In this document: in pieces, positions 31,331 to 32,211 of the stretch
Layout: each line of letters starts with the position of its first letter
Numbering within the stretch: position 1 is the stretch's first letter
IMG/VR virus record: IMGVR_UViG_3300010160_000003
Location: 1 to 64,000 of that record
Origin: a virus
DNA: 64,000 nt
Strand: one strand, 5' to 3'
Program-made: the position numbers and the translations under genes
Notes under the pieces: generated by a model
Seen by the model: the letters and a program-made list of their open reading frames with translations, nothing else
Told to the model about the DNA's origin: nothing
Databases searched by the model: none

Positions 31331-31693
31331 ATTAAGGTTTGTAGCAAATGTGGGCTTAACTTAGATAAGTCCTTTTTCTCTCCATCTTCTGGTGGGAAAT
31401 ATTTAAGGCCAGAGTGTAGGTCTTGTGCTTCCAAATTAGCAAAGCAAAGGCTAGAACTAAGGAAGGTTTGGGGATATCCAGAAGAAGATCACATATGCCC
31501 TATTTGTTTAAAAAATGAACAAGAACTCAAGGGTACTGGAGGAAATGCTAGTATCTGGGTAGTAGATCATGACCACATAACAAATAGTTTTAGAGGACAT
31601 ATATGCCACAATTGTAATCGTGGTCTTGGTGTATTCCAGGATAATGTTGATAGATTAGAAAGAGCAATTAGTTATCTAAGTTCGGAGCGGTAG
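31331..31693 (+). CDS. Endonuclease VII / HNH-like nuclease without normal start codon
   Basis: Open frame of 120 codons: IKVCSKCGLNLDKSFF, RPECRSCASK, then ICPICLKNEQEL, VVDHDHITNSFRGHICHNCNRGLGVFQDN, a full endonuclease VII domain similar to residues 70-208 of the fusion at 26858. No ATG, GTG or TTG is in frame before the domain. ATT at 31331 takes the place of the usual Met (MKxCxKCG) and AAGG lies eight bases upstream, so an AUU start is plausible; otherwise the gene has lost its start or is read through from the membrane peptide. Stop TAG lies inside tRNA-Ile. Confidence 0.65.
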   Translation: MKVCSKCGLNLDKSFFSPSSGGKYLRPECRSCASKLAKQRLELRKVWGYPEEDHICPICLKNEQELKGTGGNASIWVVDHDHITNSFRGHICHNCNRGLGVFQDNVDRLERAISYLSSER

Positions 31694-31756
31694 CCAAGTG
31701 GTAAAGGCATCAGCCTTATATGCTGAAGATCGTGAGTTCAACCCTCACCCGCTCTA
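31684..31756 (+). tRNA. tRNA-Ile (anticodon TAT), reads AUA
   Basis: Acceptor GGAGCGG/CCGCTCT (one G-U), D arm GCC/GGC, anticodon arm TCAGC-CTTATAT-GCTGA with U33 and A37, T arm GTGAG-TTCAACC-CTCAC, discriminator A, no CCA. UAU anticodons are rare in bacteria, which usually read AUA with a lysidine-modified CAU tRNA. AUA is common in this AT-rich genome. Overlaps the stop of the nuclease gene. Confidence 0.9.
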
Positions 31757-31757
31757 C

Positions 31758-31833
31758 CCCTAAGTATGCCCTGCGGTTTCTACCCGCTTGAAAGGCTAAC
31801 GGATACATGCAGGTTCAATCCCTGTCTTAGGGA
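31758..31833 (+). tRNA. tRNA-like element, possible Arg (anticodon TCT), non-canonical
   Basis: 76 bases. Perfect acceptor CCCTAAG/CTTAGGG, T arm GCAGG-TTCAATC-CCTGT, discriminator A. An anticodon-type hairpin GCGG-TTTCTAC-CCGC (U33, UCU, A37) sits only eight bases after position 9, leaving no normal D arm and a 21-base region before the T arm that contains a D-loop-like AACGGATA. Either a D-arm-less tRNA-Arg for AGA, or a rearranged relic. Confidence 0.5.
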
Positions 31834-31866: not shown

Positions 31867-32211
31867 ATGCCATATAAAGATCCAGAAAAACAAAAAGCAG
31901 CGCAGAGTGCTTGGTATAAAAAAAATAAAGAATTAACATATTCAAGATCTTTAAATAGCAAAGAAAAACGTAAAAACATAGTTAGAGAAATAAAAGAATC
32001 TTCTCCGTGTAAAGATTGTAATATTTTCTATCCATACTATATTATGCATTTTGACCATATGGATTCATCAAAAAAGATTGATAAAATTTCTTCAATTATT
32101 CATACATCCAGTTTAAGTAGTATTTTAAAAGAAATAGAAAAGTGTGAACTTGTCTGTTCAAATTGTCACTCTAAAAGAACATGGAAGCGTCAGCACGGAC
32201 TGATGCTATAA
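31867..32211 (+). CDS. HNH endonuclease (114 aa), leaderless
   Basis: Basic N-terminus MPYKDPEKQKAAQSAWYKKNKE (typical of free-standing phage HNH genes), CKDCN, MHFDHMDSSKK (first His) and CELVCSNCHSKRTWKR (zinc Cys and last His). It matches the HNH gene at 45428. TATAAT six bases before ATG. Probably a homing-type nuclease. Confidence 0.8.
   Translation: MPYKDPEKQKAAQSAWYKKNKELTYSRSLNSKEKRKNIVREIKESSPCKDCNIFYPYYIMHFDHMDSSKKIDKISSIIHTSSLSSILKEIEKCELVCSNCHSKRTWKRQHGLML

What the first reader, a model, noticed from the sequence alone, without database searches (positions are those of the whole stretch)
31758..31833. tRNA-like element with perfect ends but no normal D arm
Acceptor stem, T arm and discriminator are ideal, total length is 76, yet the only anticodon-type hairpin (UCU, U33, A37) comes eight bases after the acceptor. 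A D-loop-like AACGGATA lies after it, as if D and anticodon arms had exchanged places. AGA is frequent in this AT-rich phage, so a tRNA-Arg(UCU) would be useful. It may be a new tRNA shape or a decoy for tRNA-cutting defence nucleases.
Basis: partly seen in the sequence, partly recalled or inferred. Interest (0 to 1): 0.75.

Follow-up and report, generated by a model that had tools for sequence, protein, structure and literature searches.

The report
Phage tRNAs with two arms swapped
Many bacterial viruses carry arginine and isoleucine transfer-RNA genes in which the D-arm and anticodon-arm segments come in the opposite order along the chain, yet every pairing and recognition base expected of a working tRNA is kept, and in several phages these genes sit exactly where relatives have the ordinary tRNA.

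Summary
The element (31758-31833 +) is real and is one member of a large, previously unannotated phage RNA family. Pattern scans of viral contigs and phage isolates gave 215 distinct relatives that pass a structural filter. All share one nested structure: acceptor - [D 3' strand] - anticodon arm - GAAA linker - [D 5' strand] - D loop - T arm - acceptor. Canonical segments 10-21 and 22-43 have changed places, a non-circular permutation of tRNA.

18 of 19 pairs show double compensatory changes, including all three D-helix pairs; the elbow pair 19-56 also switches between G-C and A-U. Anticodons are only Arg or Ile (plus CAU and one Val). Base 20 is A in 101/101 Arg and U in 103/104 Ile members, as the synthetases require. 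In 12 Streptomyces phages each of four Arg tRNAs is present once, as either the ordinary or the permuted kind (48/48 slots). A crAss-like phage shows the same swap for tRNA-Ile(GAU).

Best reading: translation-competent tRNAs with a new backbone order. Many abut an HNH or endonuclease VII gene, so homing may spread them. No expression or charging data exist. No earlier description was found in the open-access library (preprints not held).

The parts
31758..31833 (+). whole permuted tRNA-Arg(UCU), 76 nt including discriminator A73
   Evidence: R1 model 84.2 bits; ordinary tRNAs in the same search score at most about 27
31758..31764 (+). acceptor stem, 5' strand (CCCTAAG)
   Evidence: 7/7 paired; all 7 pairs double-compensated in the family
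31765..31767 (+). U8, A9 and N22-equivalent (TAT)
   Evidence: U8 A9 invariant in alignments A1 and A2
31768..31770 (+). D stem, strand equivalent to canonical 23-25 (GCC), now 5' of the anticodon arm
   Evidence: pairs with 31794-31796; 117/117 unbiased pattern hits pair 3/3, shuffles mean 46
31773..31787 (+). anticodon arm GCGG-TTTCTAC-CCGC; anticodon UCU at 31779-31781
   Evidence: 4/4 pairs, all double-compensated in the family
31788..31793 (+). linker TTGAAA joining the anticodon arm to the D 5' strand
   Evidence: GAAA invariant or nearly so
31794..31796 (+). D stem, strand equivalent to canonical 10-12 (GGC), now 3' of the anticodon arm
31798..31808 (+). D loop as single strand: A14 A15 .. 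G18 G19 A20 . A21 C A U48
   Evidence: A20 in 101/101 Arg members, U20 in 103/104 Ile members; position 19 covaries with 56
31809..31825 (+). T arm GCAGG-TTCAATC-CCTGT
31826..31833 (+). acceptor stem 3' strand CTTAGGG and discriminator A73 (CCA not encoded here; next bases CTT)
31684..31756 (+). ordinary tRNA-Ile(UAU), one base upstream, probably co-transcribed
   Evidence: ARAGORN and Rfam RF00005, 70 bits
31331..31693 (+). endonuclease VII-like ORF running into tRNA-Ile
   Evidence: Pfam Endonuclease_7, 1.6e-14
31867..32211 (+). HNH endonuclease, same family as those abutting permuted tRNAs in other phages
   Evidence: PHROG 3106, 1.1e-22

Best explanation
The element is a working tRNA-Arg(UCU) whose chain runs through the tRNA fold in a different order: canonical segments [1-9][10-21][22-43][44-76] have become [1-9][22-43][NNGAAA][10-21][46-76]. 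The chain leaves the acceptor, enters the D stem by its 3' strand, makes the anticodon arm, returns through GAAA to form the D 5' strand, and continues as the D loop straight into the T arm. D stem, D loop-T loop elbow, anticodon and acceptor can therefore lie where they do in an ordinary tRNA. The host's RNase P, CCA enzyme, ArgRS (or IleRS for sisters), EF-Tu and ribosome would use it. It reads AGA, the phage's commonest Arg codon. Shown: gene family, secondary structure, elbow covariation, identity bases, same-slot replacement. Inferred: transcription, charging, decoding, L-shaped 3D fold. Why it spreads is inferred with lower confidence: adjacent HNH or endonuclease VII genes suggest homing cassettes.
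For: (1) RNAalifold returns the permuted structure on two alignments. 18/19 pairs are double-compensated in A2, 98.6% of cells paired vs 60.8% shuffled, covariation 0.973 vs 0.215. (2) In 117 hits of patterns that do not constrain pairing, the D helix pairs 3/3 in 117 (shuffle mean 46, max 57). (3) Elbow pair 19-56 is G-C in 206, A-U in 9, never mixed, in the 215 filtered elements. (4) N20 is A in 101/101 Arg, U in 103/104 Ile; N73 is A in 104/104 Ile. The identity review gives A20 as the main bacterial Arg determinant and A73, U20, C4-G69 for Ile (PMC9976931). (5) Replacement: Arg ACG, UCG, UCU, CCU in 12 Streptomyces phages are filled by exactly one kind in 48/48 slots, 40 ordinary and 8 permuted. 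Mildred21 has permuted tRNAs in three slots that are ordinary in Jay2Jay. crAss-like 'tikkala' has permuted Ile(GAU) where crAss001 has the ordinary one. (6) CCA is encoded in 61/101 Arg members; 206/296 copies lie within 300 nt of an ordinary tRNA.
Against: No transcript, charging or structure data are available here. Single-sequence folding does not favour the permuted structure: the window 76-mer folds otherwise, and the median gap to the minimum free energy is 3.4 kcal/mol against 2.2 for ordinary tRNAs. Columns required by the scan patterns (for example TAA and GAAA) are conserved partly by construction. The Mildred21/G007 UCU elements fit poorly (D helix 2/3, anticodon stem 3/4, about 44 bits). 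The tallies ignore relatedness, and the 20-70 kb stretch of the eight genomes added was not read.
Confidence: 0.88

Rival explanations
1. Decoy: a tRNA mimic that soaks up host tRNA-cutting nucleases or modification enzymes and is never used in translation.
For: Phage tRNAs are known players against tRNA-targeting defences (PMC10264068, PMC11555353; listed), and Jay2Jay carries RNA ligase and PNK genes.
Against: A decoy needs neither the D-loop determinant matched to its anticodon nor an encoded CCA, and would not be present exactly in the slots where the ordinary isoacceptor is missing.
Confidence: 0.05
2. Non-translational tRNA-like RNA, for example a Y RNA that binds the phage Ro protein or a regulatory RNA.
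For: Bacterial Y RNAs mimic tRNA with a permuted order (PMC11472068), and BE-type Streptomyces phages carry a Ro-like gene.
Against: Y RNAs match tRNA by circular permutation, whereas here both ends are normal tRNA ends with discriminator and often CCA. The anticodon is kept and matched to N20 and N73. Copies occur for several isoacceptors.
Confidence: 0.03
3. Pseudogenes or debris of ordinary tRNA genes without function.
For: Annotation tools miss or mislabel them.
Against: Compensatory change at 18/19 pairs and at the 19-56 tertiary pair, plus 100% D-helix pairing in an unbiased set, exclude neutral decay.
Confidence: 0.01
4. The transcript is cut and religated into ordinary tRNA order, as with circularly permuted tRNA genes of algae and archaea.
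For: Genes in scrambled order that are restored after transcription are known (PMC3978253, listed).
Against: Here the 5' and 3' ends are already in place. Restoring the order would need three internal cuts and joins. No splicing motif is seen, and the encoded structure is itself fully paired and under selection as it stands.
Confidence: 0.03

Closest known systems
Canonical elongator tRNA-Arg and tRNA-Ile
   Same: Acceptor stem, T arm, anticodon arm, D stem, U8, A14, A15/U48, G18 G19, N20 and N73 identity bases, optional CCA, place in phage tRNA clusters.
   Different: Order of the segments along the chain: D 3' strand plus anticodon arm precede D 5' strand plus D loop. There is no D hairpin; the variable loop is replaced by a GAAA linker plus CAU before the T stem.
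Circularly permuted tRNA genes (algae, archaea)
   Same: tRNA parts encoded in an unusual order.
   Different: Those permute at the ends and are restored to ordinary tRNA by circularisation and cutting. Here the ends are normal, the swap is internal and non-circular, and no restoration is needed.
Type-SGC hammerhead ribozyme (non-circular permutation, Eckert 2023, PMC10085705)
   Same: A non-circular permutation of a known RNA that keeps the contacts of the parent fold; the paper reports it as the first such natural RNA.
   Different: Ribozyme versus tRNA. The permuted tRNA is nested, without pseudoknots in its secondary structure.
Bacterial Y RNA and plant-virus tRNA-like structures (TYMV, BMV)
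   Same: tRNA-like shapes reached with another backbone order (PMC11472068).
   Different: They are mimics within longer RNAs. Y RNA has no acceptor/CCA role, and viral TLSs use pseudoknotted or separate acceptor parts. Here a free-standing 76-79 nt gene has a true anticodon arm.
D-armless mitochondrial tRNAs and 8/4 or 9/3 allo-tRNAs
   Same: Departures from the usual cloverleaf (from general knowledge).
   Different: They lose or resize arms but keep the segment order.

Membership tests
canonical tRNA (cloverleaf) | 7-bp acceptor stem, 5-bp T arm with TTC loop, single discriminator | tested here: met
   window 7/7 and 5/5 (with one G-U); acceptor 7/7 in 76 of 81, T 5/5 in 73 of 81
canonical tRNA (cloverleaf) | order acceptor - D hairpin - anticodon hairpin - variable - T | tested here: not met
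   anticodon arm starts 8 nt after the acceptor and is enclosed by the D helix
canonical tRNA (cloverleaf) | recognised by tRNA models | tested here: not met
   ARAGORN 0/92 bare elements; Rfam RF00005 no match at E<=10 in the window
functional tRNA-Arg / tRNA-Ile (works like) | synthetase determinants: Arg A20, C35, U/G36, A/G73; Ile A73, U20, A35, U36 | tested here: met
   A20 101/101 Arg, U20 103/104 Ile, A73 104/104 Ile; 17 of 101 Arg have U73, also listed in the review table
functional tRNA-Arg / tRNA-Ile (works like) | D loop-T loop elbow (18-55, 19-56) | tested here: met
   19-56 G-C 206, A-U 9, no other in 215
functional tRNA-Arg / tRNA-Ile (works like) | charged in vivo and used by ribosomes | not testable with these tools
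   needs tRNA-seq, acid gel or aminoacylation assay
circularly permuted tRNA gene | 3' half encoded upstream of 5' half, BHB or leader-trailer splicing | tested here: not met
   both acceptor strands are at the true ends
bacterial Y RNA | Rfam Y RNA match / tRNA-like module without acceptor-CCA end | tested here: not met
   no Rfam match other than tRNA in the window at gathering scores; element has acceptor, N73 and in relatives CCA

The most novel reading that the evidence does not exclude
The permuted tRNAs are the rescue half of a natural cleave-and-rescue (homing) element. A neighbouring HNH or endonuclease VII cuts the ordinary tRNA-Arg or tRNA-Ile gene of a co-infecting phage, and repair installs a block-swapped tRNA that keeps every base needed for function but no longer contains the cut site. 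This would explain same-slot replacement, the either/or pattern in Streptomyces phages, and HNH genes whose stop codon touches the first base of the permuted tRNA.
Probability: 0.3. Interest if true: 0.97.

Novelty: categorically new. Interest (0 to 1): 0.95.

Why it matters
The order of the arms in tRNA has been treated as fixed across life. If these RNAs are charged and decode, the L-shape can be built from a different chain order. That would be a second natural case of non-circular RNA permutation and the first in a molecule of the core translation machinery. It gives a direct test of what synthetases, modification enzymes and the ribosome require of tRNA topology. It also shows that tRNA counts in phage genomes are incomplete: cultured Streptomyces phages that seemed to lack Arg tRNAs carry them in this form, and crAss-like gut phages and marine phages carry them too. 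A consistent guess for why only Arg and Ile (perhaps Val) occur: these are subclass Ia synthetase substrates, and a changed variable region may be tolerated there.

Tried and rejected
A canonical D arm by other pairings: only 8 nt lie between acceptor and anticodon stem, so none is possible. Reading CUUGAAA (31787-31793) as a Ser(UGA) anticodon loop: no flanking stem. Minimum free energy folding of the single sequence: gives another fold, z -1.16, not informative for tRNAs. Direct blastn of the window element against phage records: found only ordinary tRNAs or chance matches, because acceptor and T stems differ; consensus queries worked. Plasmids: only ordinary tRNA ends. Bacterial genomes: 2 contigs in 84,980 genomes for the GGY core; one is identical over 1.4 kb to a phage contig. 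Literature: ten searches found no earlier description. Pfam has no family for the HNH genes, PHROGs does.

Full report
What was checked. The host genome is a 100,390-bp virus record with 36% G+C. AGA is half of its Arg codons. Its DNA polymerase is closest to Streptomyces phages, at about 54% identity. It carries ordinary tRNA-Asp(GUC) and tRNA-Ile(UAU) and no ordinary tRNA-Arg.

A family. A scan of viral contigs with only the anticodon hairpin GCGGTTTCTACCCGC returned ordinary tRNA-Arg genes and about 15 copies of the odd element with different but fully paired acceptor and T stems. A second pattern from the conserved middle, which leaves the anticodon free, gave 103 loci. A structural filter over all fetched loci holds 215 distinct elements in 296 places. 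Environments and hosts include freshwater and marine contigs, Streptomyces, Microbacterium and Rhodococcus phages, a 462-kb uncultured phage and a crAss-like Bacteroides phage.

Structure. RNAalifold, given only the alignment, returns the same nested structure for two alignments: acceptor, then a 3-bp helix that encloses the 4-bp anticodon stem, then the T arm. In the 66-sequence gapless alignment A2, 98.6% of cells pair, against 60.8% after shuffling and 30-50% when partners are slid; 18 of 19 pairs show changes on both sides. The 3-bp helix is the decisive part. Its strands were CCC/GGG, CTC/GAG, ACC/GGT, GCC/GGC, CGG/CCG, CCG/CGG, TCC/GGA, CAC/GTG and others. In 117 distinct hits of patterns that impose no pairing, all 117 pair 3/3, against a shuffled mean of 46 and maximum of 57.

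Reading the fold. In canonical numbering the 3-bp helix is the D stem (10-12 with 23-25), entered from its 3' strand. The strand after the anticodon arm reads G-A-A-A, D 5' strand, U13, A14, A15, N16-17, G18, G19, N20, A21, C, A, U48, then the T stem. So the blocks 10-21 and 22-43 have changed places while 1-9 and 49-76 stay. U8, A14, A15 and U48 are constant (inferred 8-14 and 15-48 contacts). Base 19 and base 56, the elbow pair, are G-C in 206 and A-U in 9 of 215, with no mixed case (75, 5 and one odd case in the earlier set). The three new connections (9 to 22, 21 to 46-48, 43 to 10) join points that are close in known tRNA structures; this is inference from general knowledge, not a computation made here.

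Identity. Anticodons are ACG, UCU, UCG, CCU (Arg), GAU, UAU (Ile), nine CAU and one UAC, although the scans left the anticodon free. Base 20 is A in 101 of 101 Arg elements and U in 103 of 104 Ile elements (Fisher p about 4e-59, ignoring relatedness). N73 is A in all 104 Ile elements. The review of tRNA identity names A20 as the main determinant for bacterial ArgRS and A73, C4-G69 and U20 for IleRS (PMC9976931). The CAU elements have C4-G69 in 8 of 9 and U20, which fits tRNA-Ile2 rather than Met (inference). CCA is encoded in 61 of 101 Arg and 11 of 104 Ile elements.

Replacement of ordinary tRNAs. Streptomyces phage Jay2Jay has ordinary Arg(ACG), (UCG), (UCU) and (CCU). Mildred21 keeps only ordinary Arg(CCU) and has permuted genes for the other three, each in the matching gene neighbourhood. 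For the ACG slot the flanks align at 77-82% identity on both sides; for the other two the alignable flank is shorter. TunaTartare lacks ordinary UCG and has the permuted one. TomSawyer lacks CCU and has the permuted one. Two more genomes fit in the same way. In 12 genomes all 48 Arg slots are filled by exactly one kind, 40 ordinary and 8 permuted. Placing 8 genes at random into 48 slots would hit the 8 vacant ones with chance 2.7e-9, ignoring relatedness. For Ile(GAU) both kinds co-occur in six genomes, only the permuted in four, only the ordinary in two. In crAss-like phages, crAss001 has ordinary tRNA-Ile(GAU) between Trp and Met; 'tikkala' has a permuted Ile(GAU) there, at 95577-95653, unannotated.

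Why it was missed. ARAGORN calls none of 92 bare elements. Deposited annotations show gaps (Jay2Jay 75237-75313), 'tRNA-OTHER' (Trina, Mildred21), 'tRNA-Leu' (EGole) or 'tRNA-Phe' (Mildred21 91367-91442) at these places. The family's own covariance model separates the two kinds: nearly all permuted elements score above 60 bits, the most diverged 44-52, and ordinary tRNAs about 30 or less.

Neighbours. HNH or endonuclease VII-like ORFs lie within 30 nt of 15.4% of permuted but 3.2% of ordinary tRNAs in the same loci (p about 3e-13, ignoring relatedness). One HNH family (PHROG 2255/3106) abuts permuted tRNAs in Streptomyces, Microbacterium and marine phages, often with its stop codon directly before the first tRNA base. 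The window has an endonuclease VII gene just upstream of the tRNA pair and a member of the HNH family just downstream. This suggests, but does not show, spread by homing with the permuted tRNA as an uncuttable replacement.

Limits. All evidence is comparative. There are no RNA data, no charging data and no 3D model. Patterns fix some columns by construction. Relatedness inflates p values, although different D-helix sequences in the same slot, and two phage lineages with unrelated hosts, point to several independent replacements. The literature held is open-access papers without preprints, so an earlier description elsewhere cannot be excluded.

Noticed in passing
window 31331-31693 and 31684-31756: The endonuclease VII-like ORF runs into tRNA-Ile(UAU): its last codons are the tRNA acceptor strand, and its stop TAG is U8-A9-G10 of the tRNA.
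   Followed up: partly
L289, L253, L266, L281, L294, L302, L310, L311 (marine contigs): An HNH gene's stop codon directly precedes nucleotide 1 of a permuted tRNA-Ile(UAU), often with an ordinary tRNA-Arg(UCU) a little downstream; looks like a conserved module.
   Followed up: partly
EGole 75265-75341, Mildred21 91367-91442 and 86379-86453, Trina 104372-104450: Deposited annotations 'tRNA-Leu', 'tRNA-Phe(gaa)' and 'tRNA-OTHER' are permuted Ile(GAU), Arg(UCG), Arg(UCU) and Arg(ACG).
   Followed up: yes
Microbacterium phage A3Wally, L181: tRNA names in the record appear to be assigned by reading the anticodon as a codon (for example 'tRNA-Thr(acg)' is an Arg(ACG) gene by ARAGORN).
   Followed up: no
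Mildred21 86379-86453, G007 87161-87235, G009 86686-86763, Zooman 95033-95111: Diverged Arg(UCU) variants with a different linker or an imperfect D helix (44-52 bits); may be a second sub-class of the permuted tRNA.
   Followed up: partly
L259:4-80: Single permuted element with anticodon UAC (Val), with U20 and A73; the only member outside Arg/Ile/CAU.
   Followed up: no
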